From NCBI RefSeq assembly GCF_009498455.1, contig NZ_CP045644.1, forward strand, positions 2,077,001 through 2,141,000: a stretch of DNA of 64,000 bases, in the 5' to 3' direction. Shown piece after piece: positions 48,409 to 62,379 of this stretch. Origin of the DNA: Variovorax paradoxus (lineage in GTDB: Bacteria; Pseudomonadota; Gammaproteobacteria; Burkholderiales; Burkholderiaceae_C). Both the position numbers and the translations under genes were made by a program. The notes under the pieces are model-generated. The model searched no databases. It was given only the letters and a program-made list of their open reading frames with translations, and had not been told where the DNA came from. How positions within the stretch are numbered: position 1 is the stretch's first letter; every line of letters begins with the position of its first letter.

Positions 48409-49656
48409 CTACAGCCGCGCGCCGATGCCCTCGTCCAAGGTGGTCGAAAGGGAAAGCGGGACCGTGGCCGATGCAGATCGCAACGCCGCGCGCTGGATCG
48501 CCTGACCCGCGAGCACGCGCGCCTGCGTGTCGGCCGCGAGGATGTCGTCGAGGCTCTCGTGCGCGGACGAGGGCGCGCGCTGCAGGCAGTCCTCCACCAC
48601 ATGGGCGATGTCGGTGTAGCGCAAGCGCCCGTTCAGGAACGCATCGACCGCCGCTTCGTTCGCCGCATTGAGCGTCACGCTCGCTGCGCACCCCTCGCGC
48701 AGCACCTCCAGCGCCAGGCGCAGGCAGGGAAAGCGTTTCAGCTCGGGTGCTGCGAAGCTCAGGTGGGCGAGCTGCAGGAAGTCCAGTGGCGCCACGCCCG
48801 AGTCGATGCGCTCGGGCCAGGCCAGCGCGTGCGCGATCGGCGTGCGCATGTCGGGGCGGCCCAGCTGCGCCAGCACCGACTGGTCGGCATAGGCCACCAT
48901 CGAATGGATCACGCTCTGCGGGTGGATCACCACTTCGATGCGCTCGGGCGGCATCGCGAACAGCCAGCGTGCCTCGATGGTCTCGAGCCCCTTGTTCATC
49001 ATCGTCGCCGAATCGACCGAGATCTTGCGGCCCATGCGCCAAGTGGGATGCGCGCAGGCTTCGTCGGGCGTGACCCGGTCCAGCGCCTCGAGCGGCCGAT
49101 GAAGGAACGGCCCGCCGGACGCGGTGAGCACGATCCGCTCGACCCCCGCGCCACCGGCCGGCGCACCCGCCAGGCACTGGAAGATCGCGTTGTGCTCGCT
49201 GTCCAGCGGCAGGAGCGTGGCGCCGTGCGCGGCGACGGTGCGCATGAACAGCGCGCCGGACATCACGAGCGCTTCCTTGTTCGCCAGCAGGATCTTCTTG
49301 CCCGCGCGCGCCGCCGCCAGCGAAGACAGCAACCCCGCCGCACCGACGATGGCCGCGACCACCGTGTCGCAGCCCGCCGAGCGCGCGACCTCGCACAACG
49401 CCTGCGGGCCGTGCATGACCTCCGTGCGTAGGCCGGCCGCGCGCAGTCGCGCCTGCAGCTGCGTCGCACCTTGCCCATCACCGACCACGGCCACTTCGGG
49501 GCGAAACGTGACGCAGCGCGTGAACAGCTTGTCGAGGTTGCGGTGCGCCGTCAGCGCATGCACCGTGAAACGGTCGGGGTGGCGCGCCACGAGGTCGAGC
49601 GTGCTGTCGCCGATGGACCCGGTGGCGCCGAGCAGGGTGAGGCGTTGCGTGGGCAT
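48409..49656 (-). CDS. dxr: 1-deoxy-D-xylulose 5-phosphate reductoisomerase
   Basis: A 415-residue MEP-pathway enzyme, last gene of the terpenoid operon. It begins [20 protein letters not shown] (NADPH loop), and has [12 protein letters not shown], the metal/substrate loop [13 protein letters not shown] and [14 protein letters not shown]. The C-terminal domain [14 protein letters not shown] is complete. It makes MEP from DXP. In this family the usual dxr copy is with cdsA and rseP, so this is probably a second, pathway-dedicated copy. The stop lies 94 bases from the phnY stop. Confidence 0.95.
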
Positions 49657-49666
49657 GGCGGTGCTT

Positions 49667-50968
49667 TCAGACGGCCGCAATCGGCACGACGCGCTCGTGC
49701 GACGGCACCGGCTTCATCCACGCGCGCAGCCGCTGGCCCGCCTCGGCATCGGCGCCGTAGCGCGCGGCCACGTAGGTCTCGACCAGCCGCGTGAAGTCGT
49801 CGGCGATGTGCTCGCCCTTGAGCGTCAGCGCGCGTTCGCCGTCGATGTACACCGGCGCCACCGGCTGCTCGCCCGAGCCCGGCAGCGAGATGCCCAGGTG
49901 CGCGAGCCGGCTCTCGCCGGGACCGTTGACCACGCAGCCCATCACCGCCACGTGCATGTCTTCCACGCCCGGAAAGCGCACGCGCCAGGCCGGCGCCTGC
50001 GCGTGCAGCCAGCCTTCGATCTGGCTGGCCAGCGACTGGAAGAAGGTGCTGGTGGTGCGCCCGCAGCCCGGGCATGCCGTCACGCTGGGCGTGAAGGCCC
50101 GCAGGCCCATCGACTGCAGGATCTGTTGTGCGACGAGCACCTCGCGCGTGCGATCGCCGTTCGGCTCGGGCGTGAGCGACACGCGGATCGTGTCGCCGAT
50201 GCCCTGCTGCAGCAGCACGCCCATCGCAGTGGCTGAGGCGACGATGCCCTTGGAGCCCATGCCCGCTTCGGTCAGGCCCAGGTGCAGCGGGTAGTCGCAG
50301 CGCGCGGCGAGCTCGCGGTACACCGCGATCAGGTCCTGTCCCTGACTCACCTTGGCCGACAGCACGATGCGGTCGGGCGGCAGGCCGACGTCTTCGGCGC
50401 GCGCCGCGTTCTCCAGCGCCGAAGCGATGAGCGCTTGGCGCATCACCTCGTCGGCGGGCTGCGGCTGCGCCGCCTGCGCGTTCGCGTCCATCATGCGCGC
50501 CAGCAGCGCGGGGTCGAGGCTGCCCCAGTTCACGCCGATGCGCACCGGCTTGTCGTGGCGGCAGGCGATCTCGATGAGCTGGCAGAACTGTGCGTCGCGC
50601 TTGTCGCCGCGGCCCACATTGCCCGGATTGATCCGGTACTTGGCCAGCGCCTGCGCGCACTCTGGGTACTGCGCGAGCAGGCGGTGGCCGTTGAAATGAA
50701 AGTCGCCCACCAGCGGCACGTGCACCTGCTGGCGCGCGAGCGCATCGCGGATCGGCGCGACCTGCGCGGCGGCCTCCTCGTTGTTGACCGTGAGGCGCAC
50801 CAGCTCGGCGCCCGCACGCGCGAGTGCGGCCACCTGCGCCACAGTGGCAGCCGCATCGGCGGTGTCGGTGTTGGTCATGGCCTGCACGGCCACGGGCGCG
50901 TCGCCGCCGATGCGCACGGTGCCGACGCGCACCTGCCGCGAGAGGCGGCGTGCGACGGGCGGCTTCAT
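49667..50968 (-). CDS. ispG: 4-hydroxy-3-methylbut-2-enyl diphosphate synthase
   Basis: A 433-residue [4Fe-4S] enzyme of the MEP pathway. It has [20 protein letters not shown] at the N-terminus and the cluster ligands in CPGCGRTTS and [12 protein letters not shown]. It turns MEcPP into HMBPP. It overlaps ispH by four bases and is followed closely by dxr. Clustering with ispH and terpene synthases suggests a copy dedicated to this pathway. Confidence 0.96.
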
Positions 50969-60454: not shown

Positions 60455-60483
60455 CGGGTTCTCCTGTGCGGTAGCGGTGGGTT

Positions 60484-62379
60484 TCAGGAAACAAGGCTCA
60501 TGCGAGCCGTGCGGAACGCGGGGGCGTGGGCATCGAAGAAGGCCTGGATCGACTGCACCAGCCCGTCGGCGTCGAGGCCGTGGGCGGCGAGCAATCTGGC
60601 GCAGTCGCCGTGCTCGACGAACTGGTCGGGCAGACCGAGTTGCAGCGACGGAATGAGCACGCCTTGCGCCGCGAGCGATTCGAGGCAGGCGGCGCCGGCG
60701 CCGCCCATCACGCAGCCTTCTTCGACGGTGACGAGCACGTCGTGGGTCTCGGCGAGCGACAGCACAAGCGCGGCGTCGAGCGGCTTGATGAAGCGCATGT
60801 TGGCGACCGTGGCGTCGAGCCGCTCGGCGGCGGCCAGGCTGGGCGCGACCATGGTGCCGAAGGCGAGGATGGCGATGCGTGCGCCCATGGGCTGCGTCGA
60901 TTCGCGTCGCACGTGGCCGCGGCCGATGGGCAGCGGCTGCATTTCGCGCACGGGCAGCGCGCCGGGCCCGCTGCCGCGCGGGTAGCGCACGGCGGCGGGG
61001 CCGTCGTGGCGCAGCGCGGTGTGCAGCATCTGGCGGCACTCGTTCTCGTCGGACGCGGCCATCACGACGAGGTTCGGAATGCAGCGCAGGTAGGCGATGT
61101 CGAAGGCGCCCATGTGCGTCGCGCCGTCGGCACCGACGATGCCGGCGCGGTCGACTGCGAACACGACCGGCAGGTTCTGTAGGGCCACGTCGTGGATCAG
61201 CTGGTCGTAGGCGCGCTGCAGGAAGGTCGAGTAGATGGCGACCACGGGTCGCATGCCTGCCGCTGCCAGCCCCGCAGCGAAGGTCACGGCGTGCTGCTCG
61301 GCGATGCCGACATCGAAATAGCGTTCGGGAAAGCGGCGCTCGAACTCCATCAGGGCCGAGCCCTCGCGCATGGCGGGCGTGATGGCCGTCACGCGGGCGT
61401 CGGCTTCGGCCTCGTCGCAGAGCCAGTCGCTGAAGACCTGGGCGTAGGTCGGCTTCGCAGGCGTGGTGGCCGGGGCGCTCTTGATACCGGCGACGGGATC
61501 GAACTTGCCGGGGCCGTGGTACAGGACCGGGTCCTGCTCGGCCGGGCGGTAGCCGTGGCCCTTCTGCGTGACGATGTGCAGCAGCTGCGGCCCGGGTTGC
61601 GCCTGCAGCCGCTGCAGCGCGGGGACGAGCGCGCCCAGGTCGTGGCCGTCGATGGGGCCGGTGTAGTGGAAGCCGAATTGCTCGAACAGGGTGGCGGGCG
61701 ACAGGCCGAGGTCCGAGGGCTCGCAGGGGTCCAGCGCCGGGCGCATGGCGCGCAATCTTTGCCGGCTGGCTTCATTGGCAGAGGCGTAGGCGCGCTCTGA
61801 AATCAATCCGCCCAGATAAAGGCGCAGCATGCCGACGGGCGGTGAAATCGACATGTCGTTGTCGTTCAGGATCACCAATAAACGGCCGCAGGCCTGCGTA
61901 TTGTTCATAGCCTCGAAGGCCATGCCGGCGCTCAGGGCGCCGTCGCCGATCACTGCGATGGCGTGATCGGTTGAATTCGAAATTCGGGCGGCCTGCGCAA
62001 ACCCCAAGGCGGCGGAAATTGACGTGCTGGAATGCGCGGTGCCGAAATGATCGTGCTCGGATTCGGCGCGGCGTGGAAATCCGGAAATGCCGCCGAATTG
62101 ACGCAAGGTGGCCATGGCCTGGCGCCGGCCCGTGAGGATCTTGTGGGCGTAACTCTGGTGGCCCACGTCCCACACGATGCGGTCGCGCGGGGTGTCGAAG
62201 ACGTAGTGCAGGGCGACGGTCAGCTCGACCGTGCCGAGGTTGGAGGCAAAGTGGCCGCCCGTGCGGGACACGTTGTCGACGATGAAGGCGCGCAGTTCGT
62301 CCGCAAGGCCCGGCAATTGCGCGATGCCGAGCTGGCGCAGCGAATGAGGCGAGTCGATGGCTTCGAGCAAGGCATGCAT
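60484..62379 (-). CDS. dxs: 1-deoxy-D-xylulose-5-phosphate synthase
   Basis: A 631-residue thiamine-diphosphate enzyme, first committed step of the MEP pathway and first gene of the operon. It has the ThDP motif [20 protein letters not shown], the [12 protein letters not shown] region, and the C-terminal [20 protein letters not shown]. The ATG at 62379 is preferred, with GGAG nine bases upstream; the frame stays open to 62463. A patch at about 61780-62110 is less GC-rich (near 58%) than the rest. Likely a dedicated copy beyond the housekeeping dxs. Confidence 0.95.

What the first reader, a model, noticed from the sequence alone, without database searches (positions are those of the whole stretch)
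48409..62379. A 12-gene, self-supplying terpenoid operon with three cyclases, two methyltransferases and two Rieske oxygenases
The sequence shows one minus-strand run of twelve genes with gaps of 82 bases or less and several four-base overlaps: dxs, two SAM methyltransferases, Rieske, three terpene synthases, Rieske, ispA, ispH, ispG, dxr. Established knowledge: Comamonadaceae normally keep single MEP genes scattered, and sodorifen-type C16 clusters pair a dxs copy with an FPP methyltransferase and a terpene synthase. Inference: this is an enlarged cluster that makes an oxidised, C-methylated non-canonical terpenoid (C16 or C17), possibly several. The combination of three synthases with two Rieske oxygenases is not one I recognise.
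Basis: partly seen in the sequence, partly recalled or inferred. Interest (0 to 1): 0.95.

Follow-up and report, generated by a model that had tools for sequence, protein, structure and literature searches.

The report
Methylated terpene gene cluster in Variovorax
A soil bacterium carries a twelve-gene assembly line that boosts its own terpene precursor, adds extra carbon atoms to it, and then cyclises and probably oxidises it; the chemistry belongs to a known kind, but this version lacks the known final enzyme, so its product should differ.

Summary
In detail: twelve intact minus-strand genes, 48,409-62,379, gaps of 82 bases or less. dxs, dxr, ispG, ispH and ispA each have a second copy elsewhere, so this is not the housekeeping set. 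It is a sod/chlororaphen-type cluster. MT1 is 96% identical to VbFPPMT (PDB 24uw), reported to make C16 gamma-PSPP; MT2 is 73% identical to the P. grimontii group II enzyme, the group reported to add the second methyl (C17). Such methyltransferase pairs, dedicated MEP genes, multiple cyclases and Rieske genes are in print, so the class is known. The pathway's end differs: the group-B cyclase (DDMPLG) of published C17 clusters is absent from cluster and genome, though V. boronicumulans NBRC 103145 has one. Three cyclases of other lineages and two KshA-like Rieske oxygenases stand in its place. Across three Variovorax genomes, supply and flanking genes have dS 0.10-0.33, the cyclase/oxygenase middle 0.31-1.00 with changed gene order: conserved arms around an exchangeable core, as I read it. 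The cluster lies in a ~21 kb island at lipA, absent in 13 of 20 relatives checked. Products are predicted, not shown: oxidised C16/C17 terpenoids other than chlororaphen.

The parts
60484..62379 (-). dxs, second DXP synthase (631 aa)
   Evidence: NCBIfam TIGR00204 787.8 bits and Pfam; 64% to the genome's other dxs, 66% to the dxs of Pseudomonas clusters
59513..60454 (-). MT1, predicted FPP C-methyltransferase/cyclase, group I (313 aa)
   Evidence: 290 of 302 aligned residues identical to VbFPPMT, PDB 24uw; 70% to the group I-type MT of the P. grimontii locus; group I clade
58562..59485 (-). MT2, second methyltransferase, group II (307 aa), predicted gamma-PSPP -> alpha-PCPP
   Evidence: 73% to the group II-type MT of the P. 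grimontii locus; 225 of 298 to PDB 9sm3; group II clade
57418..58515 (-). R1, KshA-like Rieske oxygenase (365 aa); tight clade with two other Variovorax proteins
   Evidence: PF00355 + PF19298; CxH/CxxH and D-x2-H-x4-H present; closest hits 76% and 75%, Variovorax, clade 100/100
56330..57409 (-). TS1, class I terpene synthase of the lineage found beside a group I MT alone in other genera (359 aa)
   Evidence: PF19086; 90% to V. boronicumulans NBRC 103145, 48-52% to Lysobacter, G543 and Burkholderia cluster copies; DDAFT (no third acidic residue), NSE intact
55183..56247 (-). TS2, class I terpene synthase, clade next to the chlororaphen/grimophan (group B) cyclases (354 aa)
   Evidence: PF19086; 25-28% to group B, 53% to the G046 copy; tree (join 94/95, midpoint root); only 4 database relatives at E<=1e-5
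54060..55172 (-). TS3, class I terpene synthase with DDEYCDE and Ala in place of the NSE Asn (370 aa)
52927..54063 (-). R2, KshA-like Rieske oxygenase (378 aa), just before ispA in three Variovorax
   Evidence: PF00355 + PF19298; motifs; 66% and 78% to the genes just before ispA in G046 and G006
51936..52892 (-). ispA, short-chain (FPP) synthase, second copy (318 aa)
   Evidence: NF045485 FPPsyn over cut-off; 53% to the genome's other ispA
50965..51903 (-). ispH, second copy (312 aa)
   Evidence: TIGR00216 over cut-off; 54% to own other copy, 69.5% to the G582 cluster copy
49667..50968 (-). ispG, second copy (433 aa)
   Evidence: TIGR00612 over cut-off; 65% to own other copy, 74% to the G582 cluster copy
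48409..49656 (-). dxr, second copy (415 aa)
   Evidence: TIGR00243 over cut-off; 57% to own other copy
52750..59512 (.). exchangeable core (MT2/Rieske/cyclases) between conserved supply arms; edges at the 5' end of ispA and about the 3' end of MT1 in the comparison with G046
   Evidence: alignment and identity profile and dS
41955..62793 (.). genomic island beside lipA: phosphonate-type catabolic genes plus the terpene cluster
   Evidence: lipA and the sequence left of about 41,950 are 27-32 bases apart in G026 and G050 and within 2.7 kb in 13 of 20 genomes fetched

Best explanation
A dedicated biosynthetic operon for non-canonical C16/C17 terpenoids. Extra Dxs, Dxr, IspG and IspH (with the housekeeping IspD/E/F) raise IPP/DMAPP, IspA makes FPP, MT1 methylates and cyclises FPP to gamma-presodorifen pyrophosphate (C16), MT2 adds a second methyl to give alpha-prechlororaphen pyrophosphate (C17), the three cyclases turn these pools into several hydrocarbon skeletons, and the two Rieske oxygenases hydroxylate or desaturate them. 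Because the chlororaphen/grimophan-type cyclase is absent, the product is not chlororaphen or grimophan. The locus evolves by keeping the supply genes and exchanging the cyclase/oxygenase middle. Shown here: gene content, homology, missing group-B cyclase, second MEP copies, island, discordant divergence. Inferred: every reaction in this strain, the products, co-transcription, and recombination as the cause of the discordance.
For: MT1 290/302 identical to VbFPPMT, reported to make gamma-PSPP; MT2 falls with the P. grimontii group II-type enzyme, the group shown to make alpha-PCPP. Only three PF19086 genes in the genome, all here, none with DDMPLG; the NBRC 103145 homologue of the group-B cyclase is 76-77% to the two Pseudomonas ones compared. 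Second copies of the five supply genes; cluster ispG and ispH are closer to the G582 cluster copies (74%, 69.5%) than to the genome's own (65%, 54%). Rieske and Fe ligands intact. dS with G046: nine arm/flank genes 0.10-0.29, four core genes 0.53-1.00.
Against: No expression, product or enzyme data for this strain. No ferredoxin or reductase gene among the twelve, so the Rieske enzymes need electrons from elsewhere. For dxs the cluster copy is about equally close to the genome's other copy (64%) and to Pseudomonas cluster copies (66%), so closeness to the Pseudomonas set is shown for ispG/ispH only. The core/arm split was made after seeing the data; MT2 counts as core against G046 but as arm against G006, TS1 (0.31) overlaps ispA (0.33) against G006, and that contrast is smaller (about two-fold on average). 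Different codon use in the core could raise its dS somewhat. The promoter scan found nothing.
Confidence: 0.75

Rival explanations
1. It is simply the V. boronicumulans chlororaphen cluster: one of TS1-TS3 makes chlororaphen, and nothing here is different in product.
For: Same two methyltransferase groups; the island and flanks align with G046 and G006; MT1 96% to VbFPPMT. Cyclases 88% identical can give different products, so unlike ones might also converge.
Against: A cyclase 76-77% identical to the Pseudomonas group-B enzymes exists in V. boronicumulans NBRC 103145, whose MT1 differs from VbFPPMT at 3 of 302 aligned positions by eye, and has no counterpart in the window genome; TS1-TS3 are about 28% or less identical to the group-B enzymes in the long alignments (31.5% over one 127-residue piece of TS1). 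The PHE5-4 cluster map was not seen.
Confidence: 0.15
2. MT2 is idle and the cluster makes C16 (and C15) terpenoids only, since the lineages of TS1, TS2 and TS3 also occur beside a group I methyltransferase alone.
For: Burkholderia, Lysobacter and G543 have MT1 + TS1 types; G238 has MT1 + TS2 + TS3 types; no group II gene was found in the stretches read.
Against: MT2 is intact and strongly conserved between the window and G006 (dN 0.0115, dS 0.14) and present in each of the three Variovorax genomes with the cluster.
Confidence: 0.25
3. The Rieske proteins do not act on the terpenes but are hitchhikers or serve another pathway.
For: No redox partner in the operon; neither the P. grimontii locus, which makes a C17 hydrocarbon, nor the Lysobacter locus showed a Rieske gene.
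Against: Such genes accompany these clusters in three Variovorax, G582, G543, Burkholderia and G238; R2 precedes ispA and is one clade in three Variovorax; the NBRC 103145 Rieske beside the group-B-type cyclase groups with the G582 and P. chlororaphis ones at 100/100.
Confidence: 0.15
4. The higher divergence of the middle genes is rapid evolution in place, not exchange of cassettes.
For: Core amino-acid change is high as well (dN 0.05-0.34).
Against: Synonymous divergence is also about two- to four-fold higher on average, gene order and gene content differ, and identity drops sharply at ispA and MT1.
Confidence: 0.25

Closest known systems
[quoted passage not shown] 2023; paper not held, known to me through passages of PMC10881772 and sections of PMC13022886)
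   Same: Group I FPP-MT (96% to VbFPPMT) and a group II MT; genus
   Different: No group-B (DDMPLG) chlororaphen synthase; three other cyclases instead
pgr (grimophan) cluster of Pseudomonas grimontii DSM 17515 (PMC13022886; locus L048)
   Same: dxs, group I-type MT, group II-type MT in the same order
   Different: One group-B cyclase and, by the paper, a third MT; tblastn of the twelve window proteins found no Rieske gene, ispA, ispG, ispH or dxr in the 34 kb read
sod-like clusters (Duell et al. 2019, PMC6366047)
   Same: SodC-type MT with terpene cyclase(s); the paper already groups clusters by several cyclases, several MTs and oxidoreductases, and mentions a Rieske protein
   Different: This cluster adds dxr, ispG, ispH and ispA and has three unlike cyclases
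V. boronicumulans NBRC 103145 (G006, L015)
   Same: Same order of shared genes: dxs-MT1-MT2-TS1-TS2-TS3-R2-ispA-ispH-ispG-dxr
   Different: Has a fourth, group-B-type cyclase and three more Rieske genes, lacks R1; TS2 frame is broken in that assembly
KshA, 3-ketosteroid 9alpha-hydroxylase oxygenase
   Same: Rieske plus KshA_C domains, ligand motifs
   Different: R1 matches the solved KshA chains by sequence best over its N-terminal half (residues 21-183, E 2.9e-29); no reductase gene in the operon, substrate unknown

Membership tests
FPP-derived C17 (chlororaphen/grimophan-type) cluster | at least one group I MT | tested here: met
   MT1
FPP-derived C17 (chlororaphen/grimophan-type) cluster | at least one group II MT | tested here: met
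   MT2
FPP-derived C17 (chlororaphen/grimophan-type) cluster | a group B cyclase with DDMPLG (in all 12 Pseudomonas C17 clusters by PMC13022886) | tested here: not met
   three PF19086 cyclases in the genome, motifs DDAFT, DDLTISD, DDEYCDE; about 28% or less identity to group B in long alignments
FPP-derived C17 (chlororaphen/grimophan-type) cluster | alpha-PCPP made from FPP | not testable with these tools
   needs enzyme assay
sod-like cluster | SodC-type MT beside a terpene cyclase | tested here: met
   SodC itself was not compared
sodorifen-synthase-like cyclase (TS3) | DDXXXDE and no NSE/DTE motif, as published for SOD_c20750 | tested here: met
   DDEYCDE; Ala for Asn in NSE; published statement in PMC4872519
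sodorifen-synthase-like cyclase (TS3) | closest homologue is sodorifen synthase | tested here: inconclusive
class I terpene synthase (TS1, TS2) | Asp-rich motif and NSE triad | tested here: met
   NSE intact in both; Asp-rich motif DDAFT (third acid missing) in TS1, DDLTISD in TS2
KshA-like Rieske oxygenase (R1, R2) | CxH...CxxH Rieske site and D-x2-H-x4-H mononuclear Fe site | tested here: met
KshA-like Rieske oxygenase (R1, R2) | reductase partner | tested here: inconclusive
   none among the twelve genes; the rest of the genome was not searched for one
complete MEP pathway cluster | all seven MEP genes | tested here: not met
   dxs, dxr, ispG, ispH only; no ispD, ispE, ispF among the twelve

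The most novel reading that the evidence does not exclude
A natural plug-in terpene locus: a conserved chassis that supplies FPP and its methylated C16/C17 forms, around a slot in which cyclase-plus-Rieske-oxygenase sets are exchanged by recombination between Variovorax strains, so that each strain makes a different blend of oxidised C16/C17 terpenoids; this strain's blend would include what would be, to my knowledge, the first enzymatically oxygenated bis-homosesquiterpenoids, and skeletons made by the TS2 clade, from which no product is known to me.
Probability: 0.35. Interest if true: 0.7.

Novelty: new variant of a known kind. Interest (0 to 1): 0.5.

Why it matters
C17 terpenes built from doubly methylated FPP have, in what I read, two known product frameworks from one cyclase group (PMC13022886). 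This cluster pairs the same precursor chemistry with three unlike cyclases and two oxygenases, so it is a direct candidate source of new skeletons and of oxygenated products, and the three-strain comparison gives testable evidence that such pathways diversify by swapping the end enzymes while the supply genes stay.

Tried and rejected
Housekeeping set: rejected, second copies of dxs, dxr, ispG, ispH and ispA found. Full match to a characterised cluster: none seen; the original papers (Magnus 2023, Duan 2023) are not held, so the published PHE5-4 gene map was not seen and a match to it is not excluded. A promoter: the sigma-70 scan found 0 sites in 48,200-62,900 (1.0 expected in shuffles) and 4 terminator-like sites against 6.8 expected, no information either way. 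Mobile-element repeats at the island edges: I only looked at the junction letters against G040 and ran repeats inside 48,300-62,800; the largest direct repeat (118 nt, 80%) is R1 against R2, as expected of homologues. TS3 with a lost NSE Asn as a dead enzyme: not supported, the replacement is shared by 20 of the 22 sequences aligned (the search behind it, scored only the 8000 best candidates) and a missing NSE is published for sodorifen synthase. A fold model of TS2 was not obtained. Paper searches for a function of Rieske genes in such clusters; among their listings, in the held open library, I found only the 2019 mention (PMC6366047); of the other papers listed there I opened only those named below.

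Papers, what I saw: PMC13022886 abstract, introduction, sections 7, 9 and 12, and passages; PMC6366047 discussion and passages; PMC10881772, PMC4872519, PMC7862628, PMC12723460 passages only; PMC12929941 abstract and the first of two parts of its text. Magnus 2023 and Duan 2023: nothing (only as cited in others). The remaining titles: search listings only.
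Full report
What is there. Twelve intact genes run on the minus strand from 62,379 (dxs start) to 48,409 (dxr stop), with gaps of 82 bases or less and two four-base overlaps. Domain searches support every assignment. The genome (one contig, 7,288,087 bases) has a second dxs, ispA, dxr, ispG and ispH elsewhere, so the cluster set is extra. The cluster copies are far from the genome's own: dxs 64%, dxr 57%, ispG 65%, ispH 54%, ispA 53%; ispG and ispH are closer to the copies in the cluster of G582 (74% and 69.5%), dxs is about equal (66%). 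ispD, ispE, ispF and idi are not among the twelve.

Methyltransferases. MT1 has 290 of 302 aligned residues identical to the PDB chain named FPP-methyltransferase VbFPPMT (24uw) and MT2 225 of 298 to 9sm3. Against the P. grimontii DSM 17515 locus, MT1 is 70% identical to one and MT2 73% to the other methyltransferase, 42-44% crosswise; that locus carries a cyclase with DDMPLG, as published for the pgr cluster of this strain. A tree of 14 methyltransferases splits into the two groups at 100/100. Published work assigns group I to FPP -> gamma-PSPP (C16) and group II to gamma-PSPP -> alpha-PCPP (C17) (PMC13022886; PMC10881772). So the window most likely makes both the C16 and the C17 precursor.

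Rieske oxygenases. R1 and R2 have the Rieske and the mononuclear iron ligands and the KshA_C domain; they are the two best of four KshA_C matches in the genome. Among the named proteins near the top of the R1 search many are from Variovorax, Burkholderia, Pseudomonas, Serratia and Dyella, with actinobacteria further down (412 proteins at E<=1e-30, the best 120 listed, many unnamed). In a tree of 73 rows (14 cluster genes and 59 of those 120 hits) R2 groups with the genes just before ispA in G006 and G046 (100/99), the NBRC 103145 Rieske next to its group-B cyclase groups with the G582 and P. chlororaphis ones (100/100), and R1 sits with two Variovorax proteins, 75-76% identical. This suggests, on few cases, that particular oxygenases travel with particular cyclases; against it, the same TS1 lineage stands with R1 here, without it in G006, and without any Rieske gene in the Lysobacter stretch. 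A Rieske protein in sod-like clusters was noted in 2019, without a function in the passages I read. No redox partner lies in the operon.

Distribution. MT2 finds relatives (E<=1e-30 or 1e-40) in 3 of 101 genomes of the genus, 2 of 399 drawn from the order, the window's included, 3 of 398 drawn from the genus of P. grimontii (searches scored at most five candidates a genome), 3 loci in one scan of genome contigs and 2 of 72,556 plasmid records (the Streptomyces one lies in another kind of cluster). Layouts (strand normalised): window dxs-MT1-MT2-R1-TS1-TS2-TS3-R2-ispA-ispH-ispG-dxr; G006 dxs(cut by the contig end)-MT1-MT2-TS1-TS2(broken frame)-TS3-R2-ispA-R-R-ispH-R-TS4(group B)-ispG-dxr; G046 dxs-MT1-TS2-TS3-MT2-R-R2-ispA-ispH-ispG-dxr; G582 dxs-MT1-R-MT2-TS(B)-R-ispH-ispG; P. 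grimontii dxs-MT1-MT2-TS(B); G238 dxs-MT1-TS2-TS3-R; B. cenocepacia MT1-TS1-R-R; G543 MT1-TS1-R; Lysobacter MT1-TS1. The window's set therefore combines parts that occur apart elsewhere.

Island and exchange. I fetched 20 of the 98 genus genomes with a lipA match, mostly from the top of the list. In 13 of the 20 the sequence left of about 41,950 lies within 2.7 kb of lipA, in G026 and G050 within 27-32 bases, without the cluster; the other seven have other sequence there (in G089 the left flank resumes about 10.6 kb away). So 41,955-62,793 behaves as an island. It also holds an aldehyde dehydrogenase and a gene 95% identical to a type I phosphodiesterase-family gene of G046, next to which G046 has MFS, Fe-ADH and LysR genes. 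Window and G046 share the island and its surroundings at 93.8-95.2% DNA identity, but the stretch between ispA and MT1 falls to 70-76% in its main matching pieces and is rearranged, with the drop at the 5' end of ispA and about the 3' end of MT1 (the ends of those short alignments are not exact). Synonymous divergence (Nei-Gojobori, my script): against G046 nine arm/flank genes 0.10-0.29, core genes R2, TS3, TS2, MT2 0.53-1.00 (the most extreme of 715 splits); against G006 nine genes 0.14-0.33 (dxs over 154 codons only) and core R2, TS3, one TS2 piece, TS1 0.31-0.71 (rank 2 of 715). The split was chosen after seeing the alignment, and MT2 changes sides between the two comparisons. I read this as exchange of the core between conserved arms; codon use alone seems unlikely to give a two- to four-fold rise in dS, but I did not model it.

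Verdict. The new points are the absence of the defining C17 cyclase in a two-methyltransferase cluster, the assembly of three cyclase lineages with two Rieske genes, and the conserved-arms/exchanged-core pattern. Product, oxidation and exchange remain predictions.

Noticed in passing
G000:C1 ends (L109-L112): Two pairs of 20 kb stretches from the first and last 51 kb of the contig match each other at 99.65-99.76% with many small gaps, so the assembly seems an untrimmed circular contig of about 7.24 Mb; the polyprenyl synthase matches at 3,315 and 7,240,528 would then be one gene.
   Followed up: partly
window 41,950-48,314: Phosphonate-type catabolic genes (aldehyde dehydrogenase, phosphodiesterase-family hydrolase; MFS, Fe-ADH and LysR genes read in G046) share the island with the terpene cluster.
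   Followed up: partly
L050 (P. grimontii second locus) 9,000-13,400: A decayed relative of this cluster: fragments of both methyltransferases and of dxr around two TS3-like genes, separate from the pgr locus.
   Followed up: partly
L026/L015 (V. boronicumulans NBRC 103145): The TS2 frame is broken in this assembly (a full-length relative, P0123, exists in the protein database), and a 25-residue match to the ispH start lies between two Rieske genes, perhaps a trace of duplication.
   Followed up: partly
L029 (Burkholderia cenocepacia CMCC(B)23006, 1.1 Mb replicon): An MT1-TS1-Rieske-Rieske cluster in a stretch for which the collection lists no genes.
   Followed up: partly
L030 (Streptomyces sp. 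SAT1 plasmid): A distant (38%) methyltransferase relative between two adenylation-domain genes, with an alcohol dehydrogenase and an FAD oxidoreductase nearby: not a terpene cluster by its annotation.
   Followed up: no
window TS1, 56,330-57,409: The five TS1-type cyclases aligned keep DD but not the third acidic residue of the Asp-rich motif (DDAFT, DDTTT), while their NSE triad is intact.
   Followed up: no
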